From positions 1-64,000 of the forward strand of contig CAMAUZ010000021.1 of NCBI GenBank assembly GCA_945861535.1: a stretch of DNA of 64,000 nucleotides. Reading direction: 5' to 3'. The DNA is from Akkermansia muciniphila (GTDB lineage: Bacteria > Verrucomicrobiota > Verrucomicrobiia > Limisphaerales > BJHT01). The number at the start of each line of letters is the position of its first letter. The stretch's first letter is position 1. Below the pieces are notes generated by a model. It saw only the letters and a program-made list of their open reading frames with translations. It was not told the origin of the DNA and did not search any database. Position numbers and translations under genes: made by a program. Below, in pieces: positions 1,655-47,341 of the stretch.

Positions 1655-2425
1655 TTAATCTTTGGTCAGCGCCCAAGTGATGGCGTTGGTAAGGAGGCGG
1701 CGGAAGGCGGGGTTCTTGAAGTCATCGGGGTGGCCGAGGGAGGTGTAGAAGATGCGGCTTTGTTTGGGGCCGTGGCGATGGGTCCAGGCGACGGGTTCGG
1801 CGGGTTTGTCGGGGATGGTTCCAATGAGGAGCGGGGTGGCGGTGCGGACGAGGGGTTTGACGATGTAGAGGGAACCGTTGCCGGGGAGTTGGGCGGCGGT
1901 GAGGCCGGATAGGATGGGATGCTTCTCCGCGCCGGGGGCGAAGGTGATGGTGGTCTGCGGGCCGGCGCCGTGATGGTTGGTGTAGTGTCCGCCGAAGACT
2001 TCGGGGTCAAACTCCTGCCACGCGGCGAGTTTCGGGTCGGTGATTTTATCTTTGGGTCGCAGGGCGAAGGCGTGGGAGGCGGTGCGGATGCCGATCAGGG
2101 GTTTGCCGGCGGCAATGTGGGCGCGGACGGCGTCGAGCTGGTCCTGGTAGGGGGTGCGGCGACGGACGCTGAGGAAGAGGAGATCGGCGTCGCGCAGGGC
2201 GGCGGTGAGTCCGGGGAAGTTGTTTTTGTCGGCCTTGTCGGCGTGGATGAGGGTGATGCGGTAGCCGGCGGGTTCGAGGTCGGTCTTGGCAAATTCGGGG
2301 AGGGTTTCCCAGGTTTTGTATTCGTCTTCGCCGATCATGAACACAAGGTGACGCGGTGTCGCGGCAGGGGCATTGGGTTGGAGGAGGGGGAGGAAGCAGG
2401 TGAGGAGGAGGAATAGGAGGCGCAT
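1655..2425 (-). CDS. Secreted ThuA-like domain protein
   Basis: 256 residues with an N-terminal signal peptide (hydrophobic residues 3-15, AxA-like site near 22). The rest matches the ThuA/trehalose-utilisation fold, a glutamine-amidotransferase-like domain common in Verrucomicrobia and Planctomycetes: a GEDEYKT segment after the first strand, DLLFLSVRRR, PLIGIRTASHAF, FGGHYTNHHG and a C-terminal YTSLGHPDDF. Such proteins are linked to sugar metabolism, but no activity is firmly established, so the substrate is left open. It lies in a carbohydrate-catabolism neighbourhood and is separated from deoC by about 130 bases containing repeat-like sequence. Confidence 0.85.
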   Translation of the reverse strand: MRLLFLLLTCFLPLLQPNAPAATPRHLVFMIGEDEYKTWETLPEFAKTDLEPAGYRITLIHADKADKNNFPGLTAALRDADLLFLSVRRRTPYQDQLDAVRAHIAAGKPLIGIRTASHAFALRPKDKITDPKLAAWQEFDPEVFGGHYTNHHGAGPQTTITFAPGAEKHPILSGLTAAQLPGNGSLYIVKPLVRTATPLLIGTIPDKPAEPVAWTHRHGPKQSRIFYTSLGHPDDFKNPAFRRLLTNAITWALTKD

Positions 2426-2439
2426 GGGGAGATAGGTTT

Positions 2440-2485
2440 GGGGGAATTTTGGCAGGGGAATTTGGGGCAGGGTAATTGGGATTTG
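2440..2485. repeat. Degenerate GGGGAATTT/GGGCAGG direct repeats
   Basis: Three tandem variants of GGCAGGGGAATTTTGG occupy the spacer between the ThuA-like gene and deoC. The same words recur near 24851, 50834 and 58436 in a longer, better conserved form that begins GTGAGCACAG. They are non-coding, and I see no open frame supported by composition. Confidence 0.5.
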
Positions 2486-2554
2486 TTCGAGGTTTTTAGT
2501 TGGGGAGGCTGGGGTGGCAGATAGCCTTCTTCGATCAGCGATAGTCTTCTTCTA

Positions 2555-3493
2555 TCAGGGAAGGGAGAAGTAGTCGGGGCTTTGATAATTACCGTCGGTG
2601 AGTTTCACGATTTGCATCAGGACATCGTTGACGAGGGTGCTGGCACCGAAGCGGAAGAGGTCGGGGGTGAGCCAGTCGTCGCCGAGGGTTTCTTTGACCA
2701 TGACGAGGTAGGCGAGGGCTTGCTTGGCGGTGCGGATGCCGCCGGCGGGTTTCATGCCGATGCGGAGGCCGGTGGCGTAGAAGTGGTCGCGGATGGCTTC
2801 GAGCATGACGAGGGTGACGGGCATGGTGGCGGCGGGGGTGACTTTGCCGGTGCTGGTTTTGATGAAGTCCGCGCCGGCGTCCATGGCGAGCTGGCTGGCG
2901 CGGCGGACGTTGTCGTAGGTGACGAGTTCGCCGGTTTCGAGAATGACCTTGAGATGGGCGGGGCCGCAGGCGGTTTTCACGGCGGCAATTTCATCCGAGA
3001 CGCGGGCGTGCTGGCCGGCGAGGAAGGCGCCGCGGTCGATGACCATGTCGATCTCGTCCGCGCCATCGGCGACGGCGTGGCGGACTTCGGCGAGGCGGGT
3101 GCGCAGCGGGTATTGGCCGCTCGGGAAGCCGGTGGCGACGGAGGCGATGTGGACGGGGGAATCGGGGCCGAGGTATTTGCGCGCGTGGCGGACCATGCTG
3201 GGATAGACGCAGACGGCGCCGCAGGGGGGAACGTCGTATTGGGGCGCGGCGGGGTGGAGGGCTTTCTGGCAGAGATAGGCGACTTTGCCGGGGGTGTCTT
3301 TGCCTTCGAGGGTGGTGAGGTCCATCATGGCCACGGCGAGCTTGAGGCCGGTGAGTTTGGCGGCGTTTTTGATGCTGCGCTTGGTGAAGGCGGCGGCGCG
3401 TTCTTCGACCATGATCTGGTCGATGGTGGGAATGGACGAAACGCGGATGGGCGCGGGCGGTTTGCGGATGGCAGGGGCGGCGGCGGTGACCAT
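2555..3493 (-). CDS. deoC: Deoxyribose-phosphate aldolase
   Basis: Cytoplasmic class I aldolase that splits 2-deoxy-D-ribose 5-phosphate into glyceraldehyde 3-phosphate and acetaldehyde. From the ATG at 3493 it is 312 residues, somewhat longer than the 220-260 of bacterial DeoC. The Schiff-base lysine is K212 in DFIKTSTGK, followed by GMKPAGGIR carrying the second active-site lysine. The longer open frame reaches 3586 but runs into a repeat element, and a promoter-like pair lies at 3501-3530, so 3493 is preferred. The acetaldehyde product could feed the aldehyde dehydrogenase at 1-831 (inference). Confidence 0.92.
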   Translation of the reverse strand: MVTAAAPAIRKPPAPIRVSSIPTIDQIMVEERAAAFTKRSIKNAAKLTGLKLAVAMMDLTTLEGKDTPGKVAYLCQKALHPAAPQYDVPPCGAVCVYPSMVRHARKYLGPDSPVHIASVATGFPSGQYPLRTRLAEVRHAVADGADEIDMVIDRGAFLAGQHARVSDEIAAVKTACGPAHLKVILETGELVTYDNVRRASQLAMDAGADFIKTSTGKVTPAATMPVTLVMLEAIRDHFYATGLRIGMKPAGGIRTAKQALAYLVMVKETLGDDWLTPDLFRFGASTLVNDVLMQIVKLTDGNYQSPDYFSLP

Positions 3494-3500
3494 GGCGGGA

Positions 3501-3530
3501 AGGTTAGCGGAGGCGGCGGCGGGATGTCGA
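3501..3530 (-). promoter_or_regulatory. Predicted deoC promoter, leaderless type
   Basis: On the minus strand, TCGACA (3525-3530), 18 bases, then TAACCT (3501-3506), then seven bases to the ATG. No Shine-Dalgarno sequence is present. The -10-like box is so near the start codon that transcription would begin at or next to the ATG. Confidence 0.5.
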
Positions 3531-3572
3531 GGAAACCTGAATTGGTGGTGGCGCGGGACACGGAGTTGAAAA

Positions 3573-3678
3573 CCACTAACCGGCACTAACTGGCACTAAT
3601 GGGAAAGGAGTTATCCCGCACCTTGGGAGTAGAGTTTGGTTCGGGTTTTTATTAGTGCAGGTTAGTGCAGGTTAGTGG
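3573..3678. repeat. Dispersed inverted-repeat element, copy 1
   Basis: Left arm 3573-3600 is CCACTAAC followed by two 10-bp units (CGGCACTAAC, TGGCACTAAT). Right arm 3651-3678 is the inverted counterpart, ATTAGTGCAG GTTAGTGCAG GTTAGTGG. The 50-base centre contains the complement of ACTCTACTCCC, a motif also present in copies 2 and 3, so this copy is inverted relative to them. GAGTTG occurs four bases outside each end (3563-3568 and 3683-3688), a possible target duplication. It lies between the GH42 gene and deoC. Confidence 0.85.
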
Positions 3679-3745
3679 TGAAGAGTTGTTTCTGGTTCAG
3701 GCGTTGCCACGAGGGCGGCGGGACGGCTGCGGGACGGGGACGAGG

Positions 3746-5797
3746 TCACTGCGCCAGTTCAGTCAGCACCAGCACGCCTTGGGCGGGAAGATCGTAGGCG
3801 CCGCTGAGTCTGGCGTCGGTGAGGTGGTCGTGGACGGGATGGAAAAACTGGAGGCGCACGGACAGGTTGCCGTGGTTCAGGAGGAAGATCAGGCGCTGGC
3901 CGTCCTTGTGGCGGATGCACAGTTCGACGGTGTCGGGGACGCGGAAGTGCGGTGCGATTTCCGCGACGGTGCGCGCCCAGGCGATGAGATCGTTGTAGAA
4001 GAATTGGTGGCTGACCGTGCCGACGTAGATGGCCTTGCCCGCGCCGAATTCGTTCATCGTGATGGCTGGCGTGCCCGCGTAGAAATCCCGGCCATAGGTG
4101 CCGAGCACTTGGGCGGTGCGAGTTTCAATGAGGTCGCACCACAGGCGCGCGGGATGGCTGGCGGTGGTGGGAATCGTGGTGCGCACGGCCAGTTGGTTGT
4201 CATCGGTGGGCGGGATGGCATCCCACTCGGCGACTTCCATGCCGAAGAGATCGGTCATGTCGTAGGGCACGCCGGTGGGGGGGGCGATGTGATATTCATC
4301 CACCAGGCCGGTATGACAGGTGGCGATGAGGATGCCGCCATTGTGAACGTAGAGTTTGAGGGCATCGACTTCGGCGCCGGACAGGAGTTGCAGGCCGGGC
4401 GCAATGACCAGTTTGTAAGCGGAAAGGTCTTCGGAGGGGCGGGCGAAATCGACCAGGATGTTGCGGCCGTGGAGCGCGTGGTAAAAGTAGTTCATCACCT
4501 CGTGCGGCTGGAAACGCGGGTTGGGGCGGTGCGGTTGGTCGGCGGCCCATTCGCTCGGCTGACTGTGGAGAATGGAGGCGTCCGCCACGACTTTGCTGCC
4601 GGCCAGGAGCGGCGCGAGCTTGCTCAGTTCACTCCCCAACTGCCGGATTTCCTTATACATCCGCTGGGTGGTCTTGCCGCTGTGGGACAGCACCCCGCCA
4701 TCGAACTGATCGGTGCCGATGCGCGGCGGCCGCCAGTATTGACAGAGGAGACCGCTGGCTCCGCGCGCGATCAACTGATAGGAGAGCAGGCGGACGACGC
4801 CGGGCCGGAAGAGCGCGCTGGCTTCGCCCCACTGGATCCGCCCGACCTTCTGTTCGATGGCCCAAAAGCCTTCATCGCCGTCGGGCGTTCGCTGACCGAC
4901 CTTTTTCAACGAGCGGGCGAAGTCAATGAGACAGGCCCGTTCAGCGGGGCGCTTTTTCGCATCTTCGTCGGTGTCGAGCGCGATGAAGTCCAAGCCGTCG
5001 GCCAGATCCGAACAATCAAAGTGCGCGGCGAAGGGGCGGAGGTTGGTGGTGACCGGAAGCGTGGGACAGACGCCGTGAAGCAGGTCCACCTGCATCCGCA
5101 CAAAGGCCACGCAGGTGTCGCTGGCGAAGCGCCGCCAATCGAGCAACAGGGCGGGATTATGGGCGTCCGGGGATGCCATCGGCATGGGCATCTCATTCCA
5201 TGCAGTCACCTGTTGCCCGCGAAAAGTGGTCCCCAAGGCGGTGTTCAACTCCTCGAGGGTCCCGTATTTGGCCTTGAGCCAGGCCTGCCAGTCGCGGCGC
5301 GTTTCGGGATTGAAAGAATACTCGGTGCTCCCGCGCCCGACCTTGTCATCCACCTGCCAGGCGATGAGGTCGGGATGATTGCCCAGCGCGCCCGCCATGG
5401 CGGTGACCACCTTCCGGCAGTAGTCCCAATAGATGTCGCTGTTCAGGCTGTAGGCATGGCGCGTCCCTTCGCGGTGACGCAGGCCGTGGTCGTCCATCGG
5501 AAGAATCTCGGGATGCTTCCGGGCCAGCCACAGCGGCGGTGCGGCGGTCGGGGTGCCGAGCACGATCTTCAGTCCGTGCCGGCCCAGGATGTCCATCGCA
5601 CGGCGCAGCCAGGCAAAATCGAACTTACCCTCCTCCCGCTCGCACAAGCCCCAGGAATACTCGCCCATGCGGACTACGTTCATGCCCGCGGCGGCCATGA
5701 GCCGGGCGTCCTCCTCCCAGCGGGCCTCGGGTTGTTCGGCCGTACCATCGTAGGGGAAGACCCAGTGACCGGGATAATAATCAGCGCCGAAGTACAT
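3746..5797 (-). CDS. Glycoside hydrolase family 42 (beta-galactosidase-like), acid/base residue replaced
   Basis: 683 residues, the normal length of GH42 enzymes, which remove terminal beta-galactose. The TIM barrel starts with GADYYPGHW and MAAAGMNVVRMGEYSW; the trimerisation domain (CHTGLVDEYH, near the middle to end) follows. The nucleophile Glu is in WAIEQ (E315). Where the family has DNE(Y/F)G, this protein reads DDKVG, putting Lys152 in place of the acid/base Glu; the codon was checked on the DNA and no frameshift is nearby. These positions fit the known 141 and 312 of Thermus A4 beta-galactosidase. Activity is therefore doubtful or altered. There is no signal peptide. ATG 5797 is chosen over a GTG at 5839 because a promoter-like pair overlaps the latter. 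Confidence 0.88.
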   Translation of the reverse strand: MYFGADYYPGHWVFPYDGTAEQPEARWEEDARLMAAAGMNVVRMGEYSWGLCEREEGKFDFAWLRRAMDILGRHGLKIVLGTPTAAPPLWLARKHPEILPMDDHGLRHREGTRHAYSLNSDIYWDYCRKVVTAMAGALGNHPDLIAWQVDDKVGRGSTEYSFNPETRRDWQAWLKAKYGTLEELNTALGTTFRGQQVTAWNEMPMPMASPDAHNPALLLDWRRFASDTCVAFVRMQVDLLHGVCPTLPVTTNLRPFAAHFDCSDLADGLDFIALDTDEDAKKRPAERACLIDFARSLKKVGQRTPDGDEGFWAIEQKVGRIQWGEASALFRPGVVRLLSYQLIARGASGLLCQYWRPPRIGTDQFDGGVLSHSGKTTQRMYKEIRQLGSELSKLAPLLAGSKVVADASILHSQPSEWAADQPHRPNPRFQPHEVMNYFYHALHGRNILVDFARPSEDLSAYKLVIAPGLQLLSGAEVDALKLYVHNGGILIATCHTGLVDEYHIAPPTGVPYDMTDLFGMEVAEWDAIPPTDDNQLAVRTTIPTTASHPARLWCDLIETRTAQVLGTYGRDFYAGTPAITMNEFGAGKAIYVGTVSHQFFYNDLIAWARTVAEIAPHFRVPDTVELCIRHKDGQRLIFLLNHGNLSVRLQFFHPVHDHLTDARLSGAYDLPAQGVLVLTELAQ

Positions 5798-17621: not shown

Positions 17622-18809
17622 ATGCACTCAACCCGCCGCCTCCTCTCCTCCGCCGTCCTCGCCCTGCTGGTTCAATTCACCGTCGCCGACGCCGCGCGTG
17701 CCGCCGGTGCCGTGGCGCTGGGTGGAATCAAAACCCAGGCCGACCTCACGGCCGCGATCACAGCCACCACCGATCCGGCGGCGAAGCGCGCGCTGCAAAC
17801 GCACGCCGCCGCCATCCTCGCCGCCGCGGCGAAAAAGCCCCACGTCGATCACGTCGTCGCCACGCTCGACAAAGCGCCCGGCACCTACACGAAAACCAAC
17901 ACCGCGCCCGCCGATCTCAAGGCCGCCCTCGGTGCCGAGGCCGCGCTGTTCGACACGTTGAAAATGGTGAACCTCGGCAGCGCGGCCTTGGGCATCAAAG
18001 GCAAGCGCGAGACCGATCCCTTCGATCAGGCCTTCTACGAGCACCTCGGCCACATCAGCGATCTCGAGAGCCTCACCATTCTCAACACCACCGCGCAGAA
18101 TGACTGGCTCATTCCGCTGACCAATCTCCACGCGCTCACCCGGCTCGACATCATCAACCAGGCCAAGCTCAACGACACCGGCCTCGCGCACCTCGCCAGC
18201 CTCAAGCAGCTCGAGCGCTTCGCCTACATCGGCACGTCGATGACCGGCAAACCGTTCAAGGATTTCGCGGGCTGGACGAAGCTCAAAAGCTCCAGCTTCC
18301 GCGGCAGCCGGCTCGACGACGAAGGACTCCAGTACCTCTGCGAACGCTTCCCCACCTACGAAACCCTCAGCCTCGCCCATGCGCATTTCAGCGACGCGGC
18401 GGCGGTTCATCTCGCGAAGCTCAAGAATCTGAAGGGCCTCGAACTCGGCTCGACCAAGGCCACGTCGCAGACGCTCCGGCATCTGCTCGGCCTGCCGCTC
18501 GAATATTTCCAGCTCGGCGAAGGCGTCGATTCCGCCGGGTGCATCGACATCCTCAAGGAAATCAAAACGCTCAAGCGCCTGACCTTGAGCAACGGCAAAA
18601 TGCTCACCGACGCCGACCTCAAAACCGTGGCCGGCATGACGCATCTCGAACACTTGGAACTGGGCGGCCTGCCATTGCCGCCCGCGCGCCTGCCGGTGCT
18701 CAAGCAGTTTGCCTTCCTCAAATCCATGCGCCTCGTCCCGCCGTATCCGAAAGAAGTGCAGGCGAGCATCAAGGAAGCGCTGCCGAAGGTGGCGCTGCGG
18801 TTTGACTGA
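17622..18809 (+). CDS. Secreted leucine-rich repeat protein
   Basis: 395 residues with a signal peptide (about 1-27, ending ARAA). From about residue 110, irregular LRRs of roughly 24 residues appear: LESLTILNTTAQ, LTRLDIINQAKLNDTGLAHLASL, YETLSLAHAHFSDAAAVHLAKL, LKGLELGSTKAT, LKRLTLSNGKMLTDADLKTVAGM. The LxxLxLxxxxxTDxGLxxL pattern is the cysteine-poor LRR_6 type common in Planctomycetes and Verrucomicrobia. It probably binds a protein or glycan outside the cytoplasm. It resembles the LRR half of the protein at 27956-29842. Confidence 0.82.
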   Translation: MHSTRRLLSSAVLALLVQFTVADAARAAGAVALGGIKTQADLTAAITATTDPAAKRALQTHAAAILAAAAKKPHVDHVVATLDKAPGTYTKTNTAPADLKAALGAEAALFDTLKMVNLGSAALGIKGKRETDPFDQAFYEHLGHISDLESLTILNTTAQNDWLIPLTNLHALTRLDIINQAKLNDTGLAHLASLKQLERFAYIGTSMTGKPFKDFAGWTKLKSSSFRGSRLDDEGLQYLCERFPTYETLSLAHAHFSDAAAVHLAKLKNLKGLELGSTKATSQTLRHLLGLPLEYFQLGEGVDSAGCIDILKEIKTLKRLTLSNGKMLTDADLKTVAGMTHLEHLELGGLPLPPARLPVLKQFAFLKSMRLVPPYPKEVQASIKEALPKVALRFD

Positions 18810-22234: not shown

Positions 22235-24685
22235 TTATTTTTTTAGCAGCCGGGCCTTCACCTCGGCGGGGAGCTGGGATTGTTGAATCCAGGTGGTGGC
22301 GGCGGGTTCGTCGGTGCGGAGCCAGTTGCGGGCGACGGCGGCGAGGCGCTGGTCGCGAGTCTCGGGATTGCTGATGGTCGCGGCCCATTGGAGGGCGTTG
22401 GCGGGATCGCTGGCGGCGACGGTCTGGGCGTAGGAGGCGATGGCGGGATCGCGATCGGCCCCGGCGGGCAGGGATTGAATCCATTGGGCGGCGGCGGCGG
22501 GATCTTGCTGCGCCCATTGGCTGGCGACGCTGGTGAGGGCGTCGGTGCGGGCGGTCCCCGCGGGGAAGACGCCGACCCAGGTGGCGGCTTTGTCCGGCTC
22601 GCTGCGCGCCCAGGCGGTGACGACATTTTGCACGGCTTCATTGCGGCCGGGGCCGTTGGGAAGCGACGCGACAAACGTGGCGGCGGCGTGGGGCGCCTGC
22701 TCGGCCCAGGCGGCGCTGATGCTGGCGATGGCCTGCGAACGCTGCGCGCCAGCGGGGAGCTGGGTCGCCCAGGTGACGGCGGCGGTGGGATCATTGCCAG
22801 CCCAGGTGACGAGGATGTTTTCGAGGGTGCCATGGTTGGCGTCGTTGCGCGGGAGGGTGAGGGCGAATGCGGCGGCGGCGGCGGGATCTGATTCCGCCCA
22901 TTGCTGGCTGACTTCGGTGAGGGCGCGGGCGCGCGAGGGTTCGTCGGGGAGTTGGCGCGCCCAGTTCATCGCGCCCTCGACATCCACGCCGGCCCACTGC
23001 GCGGCGACGTTGCCGATGAGGTCGGCGCGCAGATTTCCGGCGGGGAGGGCGGAGACAAATTTCGCGGCGGCCTGCGGATCGGTGGAGGCCATCTGGCTGG
23101 CGATGCTTTGCAGGGCTTCGCGCTGGCCCTGACCGGCGGGAAGTTTCTGCGCCCACGCGGCGGCGGCGTCCGGATCGGCCTGTGCCCATTGGGCGGCGAC
23201 GGTGCCGAGCAGACCGTTGCGCTGCGGACTGGAGGGCAGCGACATCGCCCAGTCGGCGGCCTGCTCGGGGCGCTGTTGCGCGAGCTGGTAGAGGATGCCT
23301 TGCGCGGCGTCGCGCTGGGCGGGGGCGGGGAGGGTCTTGAACCACGCGGTGGCGGCGTCGAGATCGGTGACGGCCCACGAGGAGGCGACGGCGTTCAGGA
23401 GGCTGGTGGTGGCGGAGCCGGGGGGCTGGGTTTGCACGTAGGCGGCGGCGGCGCGCGGGTCGCTGGCGGCCCAGGTGGAGATGATGTTCTGGAGCGTGTT
23501 CTGCCGCACCTGGGTGGCGGTGATGGACTGCGCCCAGGTGAGCGCTGCGTTGGGATCGGACTGTGCGAGGGCGGTAGCTATACTGCCTGAGGCGGCTTGT
23601 TTGGCGCGGCCTTCGGGGAGTTGTTTCACCCACGCGGCGGCGGCGTTGGGATCGGCTCCGGCCCACTGGGAGACGACTGTGTTCACGGCGTCGAGCTGGC
23701 CTTGCGCGGGGCTGAGGGTGAAGGCGAGGTCGAGCGCGGTCTTGGGATGGGTGGCGCCGAGCTGGGCGCAGACGGCCTGGACGGCGCTGCGTTTGCCCTG
23801 GCCCTCGGGCAGGCCCTGCACCCAGGCGGCGGCGGCGGCGGGGTCGCGACCGGCCCATTGCGAAGCGATGCTGCTGATCGCGCCGTCGCGCTGCGGGCCG
23901 GGGGGAAGTTCGCTGAGCGCGCGGCTGGCGGCGGCGGGATCCTGCGCGGCCCAGTTGCCGAGGATGAGTTCGGCGATGCCTTCGGAATCGCGCGGACCTT
24001 CGCGGCTGCGGAGGGCGTTGTGTTGCTTGAGCAGCTCGAAGGCGGCCTGGGGGTCCAGCCCGGCGAGGGTCTGGGCGACGGCCTGGATGGCCTGAATGCG
24101 CGCGGGTCCGGCGGGCAGTCGCGCAGCCCACGCGGAGGCGGCGGGCGCGTCGCTGGCGGTCCACGTTTCGAGAATACTACGGATCGAGTTCTGGCGTTCG
24201 CTGAGATTGCTCAATCCTTGGGCGTGAGTGATGGCGGCCACGGGATCGCCGTCGGCCCAGCGGGCGAGGAGATTTTGGATGAAGCCGGTGCGCAGGTCGG
24301 CCTGGGGAATGGCGCGGGCGTGGACGAGGGCGGCGGGCACGTCGGTGGGGGCGAGGCTGGTGGCGAGTTCGGAGAGCGCGGCCTGACGTTGGTCGGGGGA
24401 GGGATCGCGGAGCGCGTCTTGGATGCGGGCAGGGAGGTCGCCGATGGGCAGATGGGCGCCGACCGGCGAAGGATGGGCCTTGGGCGGACGGGCGGGGATT
24501 GGCGGGACGCCGGGTATGGCCGAGCGCGCGGGCGCGGGCGGCAACGTGGGAGTGAGTTTGGGACCGGGATCGGGAATTTCCGCACGGGGCTGGGGCGGGC
24601 GGACGAACTGACGGTCGAGCAGAATTCCCGCGAGCGCGCCGGTGGCGAGCAGGGCGGCGGCGAGGAGCGGTGGTGGCCAGCGCAT
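22235..24685 (-). CDS. Long 32-residue alpha-helical repeat protein, envelope-anchored
   Basis: 816 residues from ATG 24685. An N-terminal hydrophobic segment (about 5-25) is followed by a Pro-rich linker to about 95. I count 22 tandem units of about 32 residues with consensus WAxxDPxAAAxWAxxLPxGxxRxxAIxxIAxq. Each unit reads as two short amphipathic helices, so the whole is probably an alpha-solenoid scaffold in the periplasm or on the surface. It is not a clear TPR, Sel1 or HEAT repeat by eye. No catalytic motif is present. The longer upstream frame (to 24997) is spacer and has no promoter or leader sense. Confidence 0.8.
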   Translation of the reverse strand: MRWPPPLLAAALLATGALAGILLDRQFVRPPQPRAEIPDPGPKLTPTLPPAPARSAIPGVPPIPARPPKAHPSPVGAHLPIGDLPARIQDALRDPSPDQRQAALSELATSLAPTDVPAALVHARAIPQADLRTGFIQNLLARWADGDPVAAITHAQGLSNLSERQNSIRSILETWTASDAPAASAWAARLPAGPARIQAIQAVAQTLAGLDPQAAFELLKQHNALRSREGPRDSEGIAELILGNWAAQDPAAASRALSELPPGPQRDGAISSIASQWAGRDPAAAAAWVQGLPEGQGKRSAVQAVCAQLGATHPKTALDLAFTLSPAQGQLDAVNTVVSQWAGADPNAAAAWVKQLPEGRAKQAASGSIATALAQSDPNAALTWAQSITATQVRQNTLQNIISTWAASDPRAAAAYVQTQPPGSATTSLLNAVASSWAVTDLDAATAWFKTLPAPAQRDAAQGILYQLAQQRPEQAADWAMSLPSSPQRNGLLGTVAAQWAQADPDAAAAWAQKLPAGQGQREALQSIASQMASTDPQAAAKFVSALPAGNLRADLIGNVAAQWAGVDVEGAMNWARQLPDEPSRARALTEVSQQWAESDPAAAAAFALTLPRNDANHGTLENILVTWAGNDPTAAVTWATQLPAGAQRSQAIASISAAWAEQAPHAAATFVASLPNGPGRNEAVQNVVTAWARSEPDKAATWVGVFPAGTARTDALTSVASQWAQQDPAAAAQWIQSLPAGADRDPAIASYAQTVAASDPANALQWAATISNPETRDQRLAAVARNWLRTDEPAATTWIQQSQLPAEVKARLLKK

Positions 24686-27955: not shown

Positions 27956-29842
27956 TTATTTCGCCTCGATCACCAGGCCGGGGCGGGATTGTTTCAATCG
28001 TTCAATTCCCGCGGGCGTGATTTTTTTCAGGCCGAAGAGCGAGAGTTTCTTGAGGGACTTGGCGGCGGCGAGCGACTGGAGGCCTTCGTCGTCCACCTGG
28101 GCGCTGCCGAGTTTGAATTCTTCGAGCGCGGGCATTTGCGCGACCAGTTTGAGCGAATCGTTGCCGACGGTGGGGGCATGGGAGACATCAAGCTTGCGGA
28201 GGGTGACGATCCGCGCGGCGTGGGCGAGGCCGGCGGCGGTGGCCTGGTTGTCGAGCAGGGTGAGTTCTTCGAGCGGCAGATTCACGAGCGCGGCGACGGC
28301 TTCGCCCGAGCTGGCTTTGTCGGTGCTGCCCATGCCGCAGCGCTTGAGCCGGGTTTGTTTCGCGAGGCTCGCGGCGCCGGCGTCGGTGAATTTGCTGTGC
28401 GCAAACCAGAGCCGGTCCGCGATGGGAACTTCGGCGATGGCCGCCAGGCCGGCGTCGTTCAATGGCGTGAAGTGGAAGTTCACGCTCTCCAGATTGCGGA
28501 GGGCCTTGAGATGCGCGAAGCCGGTGCCGGTGCATTGGGTGGAGGCCAGTCCGAGAATCCGCAATTCGGTCAGGCCGGCGAGATGCTTCAGGCCGTCGTC
28601 GTTGACGGGCGTGAGGGTGAGGTTGAGTTCCCGCAGGCCGGTCAGCTTGCTGAGACGCCGCAGGCCGGGGCCTTGAATGGCGCAGTTGGCGAGGTCGATT
28701 TTTCGCAGCGTGGTGACGTTCGCGAGGCGCCAGAGCCAGTCGTCGGTGACGCGTTCGTTGCGGCCGCCTTTGCCCTTGAGCGGGTTGTTGCCGTTGTAGA
28801 GATCGACCGCGGTGGGGACATCGAAAATCTCGGTCCCGGTGTCGCCGGTCGCCAGGTAAAGCCATTGCGGCGCGGTGGGAGTGCAGATGAGTTTGCCGCC
28901 GAGTTCCTTGATCTCCGCCTCGAGCGCGAGGGTGGCGTGGCGCGCGGCGCCGGCGCGCTCGATCGCGGGGAGCAGGGCCGTGAGGTTGCGCTGCAAATTC
29001 TTGTCCGAGATTTTGGCGATGAGTGCGGGGCGGAACGGGGTCGCCGCGGGCGAGAGGATGTGCGGGAGCAGGATTTTGTCGGGCGGAGCGGTTTGCAGGC
29101 GGGCGAGGATGCTGTCGAGATATTGCTTCATCGCGGGTTCGGTCTTCGCGAATCCGGCGGCTGACAAAGGCTGGCCGAGCGCGAGCCGCATGGCGTTGTG
29201 CATGAGATATTTTCCGCTGTCGGATTTGAGGTGGATGTCGTCGCGATACAAATCCACGAGGTTCTTGATCGGGGCCTGTCCGGCGGCAACGTCCTCGGCG
29301 ATTTGCGCCAGAAGATTTTGGGCAAGCGTCTGCCGCAGCTCGCGGCCGGGATGGAGGCGGCGCAGTTCGGCGAGCAGGGCGCGGAAATAACCGGGGTTGT
29401 GGACCATCTGATCCGGCGCGGCGTAGCCCGCGAATTCGTCCGCGTGCTGGGCGTGTCGGGACCAGCCGGAGTGAATGACGAACACGGCCTTGGGCTGCAG
29501 CTTCATCCAGGCGGAAATGGTTTCCACGTCCTGGGCCAGGGTCGAGCCGTAGTGCGGCTGCACGGAGATGACATCGTATTGGCGGTCACGCAGGGCGGCC
29601 GGCCAGAGGGTGGAATTGGTCACGCAGGGCTTGTCCGGATGGCTGAAAATACGGGTGAGGTGCGTGCCACAATCCACATGCCATTGCACATCGCCGGACA
29701 ACAGCGACGGCACGGTGTCCCAGGTGAGGGAATTGCCGATCAGGTAAAACCGGGTGGCGGTCGGGGCCGGCGCCGATCCGGCGGGTGTGGCCGCGGTCGT
29801 GACGAGGGTGAACAGGAGCAGGGCTTTGAAGAAATGCTTCAT
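27956..29842 (-). CDS. SGNH-like / leucine-rich repeat fusion protein, secreted
   Basis: 628 residues with a signal peptide (about 1-24). The N-terminal half is SGNH-like: FYLIGNSLTW (Ser38), then DDIH giving Asp201 and His204 in DxxH spacing. A linker with LICTPTAPQWLYL leads to LRR_6-type repeats from about residue 365 to the end (LRKIDLANCAIQGPGLRRL, LRELNLTLTPVNDDGLKHL, LRILGLASTQCTGTGFAHL). The fusion would tie an esterase-like domain to a binding module. It heads an operon with two sulfatases, fitting concerted removal of acyl and sulfate groups (inference). Confidence 0.85.
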   Translation of the reverse strand: MKHFFKALLLFTLVTTAATPAGSAPAPTATRFYLIGNSLTWDTVPSLLSGDVQWHVDCGTHLTRIFSHPDKPCVTNSTLWPAALRDRQYDVISVQPHYGSTLAQDVETISAWMKLQPKAVFVIHSGWSRHAQHADEFAGYAAPDQMVHNPGYFRALLAELRRLHPGRELRQTLAQNLLAQIAEDVAAGQAPIKNLVDLYRDDIHLKSDSGKYLMHNAMRLALGQPLSAAGFAKTEPAMKQYLDSILARLQTAPPDKILLPHILSPAATPFRPALIAKISDKNLQRNLTALLPAIERAGAARHATLALEAEIKELGGKLICTPTAPQWLYLATGDTGTEIFDVPTAVDLYNGNNPLKGKGGRNERVTDDWLWRLANVTTLRKIDLANCAIQGPGLRRLSKLTGLRELNLTLTPVNDDGLKHLAGLTELRILGLASTQCTGTGFAHLKALRNLESVNFHFTPLNDAGLAAIAEVPIADRLWFAHSKFTDAGAASLAKQTRLKRCGMGSTDKASSGEAVAALVNLPLEELTLLDNQATAAGLAHAARIVTLRKLDVSHAPTVGNDSLKLVAQMPALEEFKLGSAQVDDEGLQSLAAAKSLKKLSLFGLKKITPAGIERLKQSRPGLVIEAK

Positions 29843-46838: not shown

Positions 46839-46991
46839 GCGCTGGAGTTGGTGTGTGGCTTTCGAACGGCAAAAGAATACGCAGAGTGACGGGTGGGGGC
46901 AGCCTGAATTCCAGACGGAGATTCAGCACAGGGCGCATTTCGGTTTCTTGAACCCGTCTGGTTCCCGCCCCCAGCCCAGCGGGCAAAAGAC

Positions 46992-47142
46992 AATAGCCCA
47001 GCACTTCAGTGCTGGGTCCGCGTCGGGAGCGACTCAGTCCCGTCAGGGACGAAAGAAACCGTGCGCCGTCTCGCCTCTTTCGTCCCTGCCGGGACTTTCG
47101 AGCTCCCCGGCCGCCAACCCAGCACTGAAGTGCTGGGCTATT
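46992..47142. repeat. 26-bp perfect inverted repeat with inner hairpins
   Basis: Arms 46992-47017 and 47117-47142 are exact complements (AATAGCCCAGCACTTCAG...). Each arm contains the palindrome CCCAGCACTTCAGTGCTGGG. The centre has CGTCAGGGACGAAAG facing CTTTCGTCCCTGCCGGGAC. Spacer 46839-47341 holds no gene. Confidence 0.85.
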
Positions 47143-47341
47143 TTCGGTCGTCCCTGCGGGACTGCCCCAACGCGCACTGATCAGTACGGGAAACTCAGCT
47201 GCGCCCGCGATTCCGCGCCCCGACGGCGGGCTTGTCTTCAATTTCGGCGGACCTATTCTCCGCTCCGAACCAACCAGCCAATCGCCACGCCCGCCGTGCG
47301 GGATCATGGCCTGGCTCAGCAAACCAACAGACCCTCGCATC

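What the first reader, a model, noticed from the sequence alone, without database searches (positions are those of the whole stretch)
22235..24685. 816-residue protein of 22 tandem 32-residue helical repeats
Nearly the whole protein is a regular WAxxDPxAAxxWAxxLPxGxxRxxAIxxIA repeat behind a membrane-anchoring N-terminus. The two-helix unit looks like an alpha-solenoid but does not match TPR (34), Sel1 (36) or HEAT (about 40) by length or signature. It could be a surface or periplasmic scaffold; the repeat number may vary between strains.
Basis: partly seen in the sequence, partly recalled or inferred. Interest (0 to 1): 0.5.

Follow-up and report, generated by a model that had tools for sequence, protein, structure and literature searches.

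The report
Uncatalogued 32-residue helical repeat scaffold protein
A verrucomicrobial bacterium encodes a long protein of 22 stacked helix pairs, probably tied to its membrane by one end; it belongs to a large family, found almost only in this group of bacteria, that the reference libraries searched do not list and whose job is unknown.

Summary
In detail: window 22235-24685, minus strand, encodes 816 residues; 83-791 are 22 head-to-tail units, twenty of exactly 32 residues, one of 38, one of 31. AlphaFold2 gives a confident two-helix solenoid behind a hydrophobic helix and a disordered Pro-rich linker. No Pfam, NCBIfam or PDB sequence family accounts for it; the one Pfam match above its cut-off (ELYS) looks like a faint per-unit resemblance summed over many units. 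It is a family: 76 of 288 genomes of the phylum. Of 98 DNA stretches with its signature among 84,980 species, 92 bear Verrucomicrobiota or Lentisphaerae names, five say 'bacterium', one 'Proteobacteria'. The guess that repeat number varies is not borne out between species: the sister species has the same units, and 11 of 12 orthologues in another clade are collinear. Best reading: a membrane-tethered, probably extracytoplasmic protein-binding scaffold. The side rests on one fusion to an ECF sigma factor. No neighbour recurred family-wide; one clade sits between DinG-like and ImuB/DnaE2-like genes. Function is inferred.

The parts
22235..24685 (-). Complete coding sequence of the 816-residue repeat protein (ATG at 24683-24685, stop at 22235-22237)
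   Evidence: orthologue in the same genus 91% identical, dN/dS 0.22
24608..24667 (-). Residues 7-26: N-terminal hydrophobic helix (membrane anchor or signal sequence)
   Evidence: AF2 helix 7-26; a hydrophobic 18-mer in the first 160 residues of 106 of 116 5'-complete family ORFs
24440..24607 (-). Residues 27-82: Pro/Ala-rich linker; its stretch 28-75 is predicted disordered
   Evidence: pLDDT below 50 over residues 28-75; dN/dS 0.81 and all six inserted residues of the orthologue lie here
22313..24439 (-). Residues 83-791: 22 tandem two-helix units (20 of exactly 32 residues, one of 38, one of 31)
   Evidence: shuffle controls; AF2 helices of about 17 and 9 residues alternate over most of it; dN/dS of residues 83-816 is 0.15
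23942..24055 (-). Irregular unit, residues 211-248 (38 residues, insertion)
   Evidence: pLDDT dips to 71-81 over residues 221-240
23273..23365 (-). Irregular unit, residues 441-471 (31 residues)
22238..22312 (-). Residues 792-816: C-terminal half unit plus capping helix, family consensus S-x-LP-xxx-K-xx-LL
   Evidence: highest mean pairwise column identity (0.42 against 0.32-0.37) of the last ten segments in 19 homologues, two near-identical rows left out; alignment A1

Best explanation
It is a member of a large, uncatalogued Verrucomicrobiota protein family. The protein is predicted to be a superhelix (handedness not determined) of 32-residue helix-turn-helix units: a short DP-capped helix carrying a Trp, an LPxG turn, then a helix of about 17 residues with another Trp near its end. 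It is preceded by a single N-terminal hydrophobic helix and a flexible Pro-rich linker, and closed by a conserved C-terminal cap. Shown here: the repeat, the family, purifying selection and a nearly fixed unit order among orthologues. Predicted: the fold. Inferred: the solenoid lies outside the cytoplasm, tethered to the inner membrane, and acts as a protein-binding scaffold or tether in the periplasm, with different paralogues serving different partners. The variety of genomic settings and the unit-specific conservation fit a family of scaffolds with individual binding surfaces rather than one conserved pathway.
For: Repeat and register. Fold: mean pLDDT 89.4, pTM 0.75, 630 of 816 residues at 90 or more; C-terminal 277 aa at 93.8, pTM 0.83. 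Family: 86 of 188 genomes of the class and 76 of 288 of the phylum. Across 110 complete distinct family ORFs, 851 successive unit pairs are spaced exactly 32 residues; the next commonest spacings are 64 (64 pairs) and 63 (52). Anchor: 106 of 116 5'-complete ORFs have a hydrophobic 18-mer in the first 160 residues. Side: in L122 (938-3088) Sigma70 regions 2 and 4 (residues 1-149) are followed by a hydrophobic segment at 212-229 (mean hydropathy 1.86) and then the repeats; it counts as a miss only because the segment lies beyond residue 160. It is 1 of 120 N-termini scanned. In L070 the order is ECF sigma, FecR, repeat gene. Selection: dN/dS 0.15 in residues 83-816 against 0.81 in the linker. 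Units are individual: mean identity among the 20 regular units is 32%, while in 12 orthologues of another clade positions 23 and 26 are 57% and 68% identical per unit against 8-9% between units.
Against: No partner, ligand or phenotype is known, and no neighbouring gene recurred across the family in the loci examined. The topology evidence is one fusion in 120; flanking charges are undecided once the N-terminal amine is not counted (N-side more positive in 37, C-side in 42, tied in 27 of 106). A cleaved signal peptide, giving a free periplasmic or surface protein, was not tested and is not excluded. In one clade the neighbours are DNA-repair genes of the cytoplasm, which sits badly with a periplasmic role if the linkage is functional. 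Unit-specific conservation may reflect packing alone.
Confidence: 0.55

Rival explanations
1. The solenoid is a sensor: a periplasmic ligand- or stress-sensing domain that works with ECF sigma factors, either fused to them or encoded beside sigma/FecR genes.
For: L122 fusion of an ECF sigma factor, a hydrophobic segment and the repeats; L070 order ECF sigma - FecR - repeat.
Against: 1 of 120 N-termini carries a sigma domain. Of 48 upstream ORFs scanned (of 65 found), no sigma family is among the 25 families shown, of 48 matched. The window gene has a sulfatase upstream and a beta-lactamase-like protein downstream.
Confidence: 0.15
2. The protein works in the cytoplasm on the inner face of the membrane, for instance tethering DNA-repair factors (translesion synthesis) to the membrane.
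For: In one clade the gene sits between a DinG-like helicase and an ImuB-like protein followed by a DnaE2-type polymerase: 16 distinct contigs show at least one of these neighbours beside it and 8 show all three (contigs fetched twice counted once). It is next to ImuB in 6 of 7 loci of one family.
Against: 0 of the 23 other ImuB-like loci in that order have it within the 1.5 kb flanks examined. The linked sequences fall in one clade (14, plus L066, for which no such neighbour was called; support 1.0), so this may be a single insertion inherited by descent. The window gene has other neighbours.
Confidence: 0.12
3. A periplasm-spanning spacer or tether of fixed length that links the inner membrane to peptidoglycan or the outer membrane.
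For: N-terminal hydrophobic helix, extended solenoid, nearly fixed unit number in orthologues and a conserved C-terminal tip.
Against: Unit numbers vary widely between family members (0-21 ungapped units counted in 110 ORFs), and Pfam shows no peptidoglycan- or outer-membrane-binding domain in this protein.
Confidence: 0.14
4. It is a bacterial membrane-coat-like protein of the kind proposed for compartmentalised PVC bacteria, or an ELYS/nucleoporin relative.
For: Same superphylum; alpha-solenoid; ELYS (PF13934) reaches E 2e-7 here, above its cut-off, and 3.5e-18 in one homologue.
Against: No beta-propeller: the first 80 residues are a hydrophobic helix and a coil, whereas the architecture is defined as an N-terminal propeller followed by stacked helix pairs (PMC2799638, passages). 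In the seven ELYS rows no stretch passes E 0.01 on its own; 6 of 21 C-terminal pieces match at E 0.01, best 8e-5. A shuffled-sequence control was not run.
Confidence: 0.04

Closest known systems
TON_1535 of Thermococcus onnurineus (PDB 3zpj; an alpha-solenoid of unknown function by recall)
   Same: First row both of the PDB sequence-profile search (E 0.0059) and of Foldseek with the 277-residue model (E 1.5e-4).
   Different: 12% identity, TM-score 0.28, rmsd 16.7; archaeal. No paper holding its name was found in the library.
Pentatricopeptide repeat (PPR) proteins
   Same: Highest VIA-align Z for the whole model (4oe1, 12.3) and second for the short one (5iww, 11.8, behind a mitoribosome chain at 12.0); unit length 31-36 by the review PMC11514114 (passage).
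   Different: rmsd 28.1 and 12.4, identity 11% and 8%; Z below the level of about 13 that the tool's note asks for in repeats. No PPR profile. PPR bind mainly RNA; this one is probably outside the cytoplasm.
HEAT/ARM superhelices (CAND1, karyopherins, SF3B1)
   Same: First rows of Foldseek for the whole model, E 2.8e-8 to 1.1e-6 over the first ten.
   Different: TM-scores 0.18-0.30 in those ten rows; units of 32, not about 40 (recalled); no HEAT or ARM profile.
Soluble lytic transglycosylase Slt70 (its alpha-superhelical part)
   Same: Second Foldseek row of the short model (1sly, E 3.6e-3); a periplasmic alpha-superhelix (recalled).
   Different: rmsd 10.0, TM 0.37; no transglycosylase domain found here.
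Membrane-coat-like proteins of PVC bacteria
   Same: Same superphylum, alpha-solenoid.
   Different: Lacks the defining N-terminal beta-propeller.

Membership tests
Alpha-solenoid (structural class) | Continuous stack of antiparallel helix pairs | tested here: met
   AF2 models, (predicted, not solved)
TPR / Sel1 | 34- or 36-residue unit (lengths recalled) | tested here: not met
   Period 32 (851 successive unit pairs at spacing 32 in 110 ORFs)
TPR / Sel1 | Profile match above the Pfam gathering score | tested here: not met
   No TPR or Sel1 family for P0001. TPR_30 in 1 of 21 pieces (E 0.0043) and in 1 of 10 homologues at 28.5 bits, cut-off 29.7
HEAT / ARM | Unit of about 40 residues (recalled) and a HEAT/ARM profile match | tested here: not met
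   Period 32; no HEAT or ARM model
PPR | Unit of 31-36 residues (PMC11514114) | tested here: met
   32 residues
PPR | PPR profile match | tested here: not met
   None
PPR | Fold match standing clear of unrelated solenoids | tested here: inconclusive
   Z 12.3 and 11.8, with HEAT/ARM-type rows 1-2 units below
PPR | RNA binding | not testable with these tools
   -
ELYS-like (PF13934) | Score above the gathering cut-off | tested here: met
   31.5 bits against 28.8; also 29.3, 30.9 and 66.7 bits in three of ten homologues, four more below it and three without a match
ELYS-like (PF13934) | A single stretch that carries the score and covers the domain | tested here: not met
   No stretch passes E 0.01 alone in the seven ELYS rows; P0001 has one stretch at the limit of E 1, covering profile 119-207 of 220
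PVC membrane-coat-like proteins | N-terminal beta-propeller followed by stacked helix pairs (PMC2799638) | tested here: not met
   No strands; helix 7-26, pLDDT below 50 over 28-75, helices onward
ImuB/DnaE2 mutasome component | Encoded with imuB/dnaE2 | tested here: not met
   The window gene's neighbours are a sulfatase and a beta-lactamase-like protein; beside ImuB in 6 of 7 loci of one family and 0 of 23 others of that order

The most novel reading that the evidence does not exclude
The family is a Verrucomicrobiota-specific modular recognition array: an extracytoplasmic solenoid in which each 32-residue unit carries its own conserved contact residues (candidates: positions 6, 8, 9, 19, 23, 26 and 28 of the unit), so that the order of units spells the target, much as PPR or TALE units do for nucleic acids, and in which some members feed directly into ECF sigma factors. 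The paralogues would then be a phylum-wide set of programmable binding proteins of the cell envelope. Not excluded, but plain packing would give the same conservation.
Probability: 0.1. Interest if true: 0.75.

Novelty: new variant of a known kind. Interest (0 to 1): 0.42.

Why it matters
Alpha-solenoids are a known kind, but this is a distinct 32-residue repeat family of mostly long proteins, found in 46% of the sampled genomes of its class and 26% of its phylum, that Pfam, NCBIfam and the PDB sequences do not name. A curated model would annotate many proteins that now have no family, or that automatic Pfam scoring would label ELYS-like. Its regular, Trp-anchored, capped unit may also be a useful template for designed repeat proteins. 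If the extracytoplasmic placement holds, it would give a handle on the cell-envelope organisation of Verrucomicrobiota.

Tried and rejected
Known families: Pfam, NCBIfam and PDB sequence searches gave weak solenoid-type or scattered matches only. Above a cut-off were ELYS (P0001 and three of ten homologues) and, in the second repeat protein of L080 alone, Katanin_con80 (31.9 bits against 27). ELYS was set aside for the reason given in the membership table; a shuffled-sequence control was considered and not run. PADLOC and PHROGs were not searched. Phage and plasmid records: no match at E 1e-5; viral contigs: no exact match to the signature. A match in the own genome at C29 (E 3.5e-4) was dropped as chance: it lies in an open frame of 742 codons that reads as a prolyl oligopeptidase-like enzyme (my reading of the translation). 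Fold searches of the whole and the short model show a generic solenoid; families not listed there are not excluded. Promoter scan: none; terminator-like sites 3 against 2.7 in shuffles.

The DnaE2/ImuB linkage was first taken as a possible function, then reduced to a lineage-specific insertion by the control. Flanking charges were first counted with +1 for the N-terminal amine (64 against 13); without it they are undecided (37 against 42) and are not used. Genes around relatives were called by longest ORF only, so neighbour lists contain antisense artefacts. Of 65 upstream same-strand ORFs, 48 were scanned: left out were further DinG-like and NIPSNAP copies, six ORFs under about 120 codons and L164, whose reference held stops; so the 3 of 48 helicases there understate that neighbour. 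score five or seven candidates a genome, so copy numbers are lower bounds. Of the 98 pattern stretches, 97 hold an ORF that meets the family profile (E 1e-8); L065 does not. The 98 are stretches, not species: several come from one bin.

Literature: searches with Verrucomicrobia and repeat, solenoid, tandem-repeat, sigma-factor or LexA terms listed no paper that is about this family by title or abstract; two searches returned nothing. One search was set to whole words, so its stem 'Verrucomicrobi' could not match and it says nothing about ELYS in this phylum. One search asked about the origin of the sister bin. Passages of PMC2799638, PMC3837014 and PMC11514114 were seen; the rest as listings. 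Absence from print is not claimed. A paper on the verrucomicrobial LexA motif, recalled, was not held.

Full report
WHAT IS THERE. Window 22235-24685, minus strand, is an intact 816-codon gene. The protein is a hydrophobic helix (7-26), a Pro/Ala-rich linker (27-82), 22 two-helix units (83-791) and a C-terminal cap (792-816). The period of 32 is far outside shuffle expectation. A 32-column profile places 20 ungapped units where 200 shuffles place at most one; the remaining two units are 38 and 31 residues long. Mean identity among the 20 regular units is 32% and the maximum 56%, so the units look old and individual rather than freshly amplified.

IT IS A SELECTED PROTEIN. The second genome held for the genus carries a 91%-identical orthologue of 822 residues. 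Its contigs 11 and 286 have the lengths (52,267 and 9,490) of records BJHT01000011.1 and BJHT01000286.1, Verrucomicrobiota bacterium LBMAG_Verrucomicrobia_hypo.bin2, so I take it to be that bin. All six extra residues are in the linker. dN/dS is 0.15 in residues 83-816 and 0.81 in the linker. The window's genome has one clear paralogue (C16, 772 aa, 36-41% identical in two pieces).

FOLD. AlphaFold2 with 40 sequences gives mean pLDDT 89.4 and pTM 0.75, with helices from residue 81 to 814 that mostly alternate between about 17 and 9 residues. The C-terminal 277 residues alone reach 93.8 and 0.83. PDB searches return HEAT, ARM and PPR superhelices with poor superposition. TON_1535 (3zpj) leads both the sequence-profile list (E 0.0059) and the Foldseek list of the short model (E 1.5e-4), but at 12% identity and TM 0.28. 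The viral structure library gives no close match. The fold class is known; the sequence family is not named in Pfam, NCBIfam or the PDB sequences. ELYS scores above its cut-off in P0001 and in three of ten full-length homologues; in the seven ELYS rows no stretch passes alone, as expected when a sub-threshold resemblance is summed over many units. I did not run a shuffled control for this.

DISTRIBUTION. Relatives are found in 86 of 188 genomes of the class with the single protein and in 76 of 288 of the phylum with a 21-sequence profile, often several per genome. A DNA pattern for WAxxDPxAAxxWAxxLPxG, scanned over one genome for each of 84,980 species, hit 98 stretches, 97 of which hold an ORF that meets the family profile. 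By record title, 92 are Verrucomicrobiota or Lentisphaerae, five say only 'bacterium' and one says 'Proteobacteria bacterium'. The pattern is strict and exact, so looser relatives elsewhere are not excluded. Viral contigs, phages and plasmids gave nothing. In 110 complete distinct family ORFs, 851 successive unit pairs are exactly 32 residues apart, ahead of 64 (64 pairs) and 63 (52 pairs); the number of ungapped units found with the window's profile ranges from 0 to 21, median 12.

REPEAT NUMBER. Variation is not seen at the level tested. The sister species is collinear. In 12 orthologues of the clade described next (44-73% identical) the solenoid has 1-3 gap columns in 11 and 33 in one, about one unit. 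No strain-level data were available.

CONTEXT. The window gene lies between a sulfatase ORF upstream and a beta-lactamase-like ORF downstream on the same strand, 477 and 61 bases away by the mechanical ORF ends. No neighbour recurs family-wide in the loci examined. One clade (14 tree members plus L066, FastTree support 1.0) has the order DinG-like helicase, repeat gene, ImuB-like protein, DnaE2-type polymerase: 16 distinct contigs show at least one of these neighbours and 8 show all three. A control with the ImuB-like protein in 57 genomes of that order found it in 30; among the 30 loci the repeat gene is beside it in 6 of 7 loci of one family and in 0 of the other 23, within flanks of 1.5 kb. 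I read this as one insertion inherited by descent; a functional link is possible but not shown.

SIDE OF THE MEMBRANE. 106 of 116 5'-complete ORFs have a hydrophobic 18-mer in the first 160 residues; the ten others include what look like mis-called starts, and L122. Flanking charges are undecided. L122, a verrucomicrobial MAG, has Sigma70 regions 2 and 4, then a hydrophobic segment at 212-229, then the repeats; it is the only one among 120 N-termini with a sigma domain. Another locus (L070) has ECF sigma and FecR genes directly upstream. Sigma factors act in the cytoplasm, so in L122 the repeats should lie outside. Extending this to the whole family is inference.

MECHANISM. I commit to a membrane-tethered, probably periplasmic, protein-binding scaffold (0.55). 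At several unit positions the identity among orthologues is much higher than that between units (position 26: 0.68 against 0.09; position 23: 0.57 against 0.08), which fits either unit-specific packing or a binding surface laid out along the superhelix. Without coordinates I could not say which positions face the groove.

VERDICT. A confirmed observation, a correct structural guess, no sign of the suggested copy-number variation, and an uncatalogued family of a known structural kind: a new variant of a known kind.

Noticed in passing
window 46973-47016 (-) and 47118-47163 (+): Two Acido-Lenti-1 RNA motifs (RF01687, 39.7 and 60 bits against a cut-off of 37) about 100 bases apart on opposite strands.
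   Followed up: no
L122:938-3088 (+) and 3085-4842 (+): ECF sigma factor fused through a hydrophobic segment to the 32-residue repeats, overlapping a second repeat gene by four bases; MAG Umea3_bin-0111.
   Followed up: partly
L179-L184 and L206 against L185-L205 and L207: Beside the repeat gene the ImuB-like protein has an open frame of 327-378 codons (398 in L206, the family member without the repeat gene), whereas the other ImuB-like loci of the order have 484-691, apart from the weak L208, as if an N-terminal part had been lost in that family.
   Followed up: no
L145, L151, L155: Another subgroup of repeat genes lies beside dnaK- and groEL-like genes and, in L151 and L155, smpB (SmpB by Pfam, DnaK and GroEL read from the translations).
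   Followed up: no
L050, L051, L061, L064, L070, L104, L107, L118 (Roseibacillus and Akkermansiaceae): A 432-aa ORF (cut short in L070 and L107) overlaps the repeat gene's end by four bases; it meets the family profile in 6 of these 8 loci, not in the two cut ones, and the L050 copy has no Pfam match: a diverged second member.
   Followed up: partly
L080:104-2059 and 2089-4881 (+): Two tandem repeat genes; the second reaches 66.7 bits with Pfam ELYS, likely to cause misleading 'ELYS-like' annotation.
   Followed up: partly
window 17622-18809 (+) and 27956-29842 (-): Two ORFs with LRR-like repeats (my reading of the translations, not profile-tested) on either side of the repeat gene.
   Followed up: no
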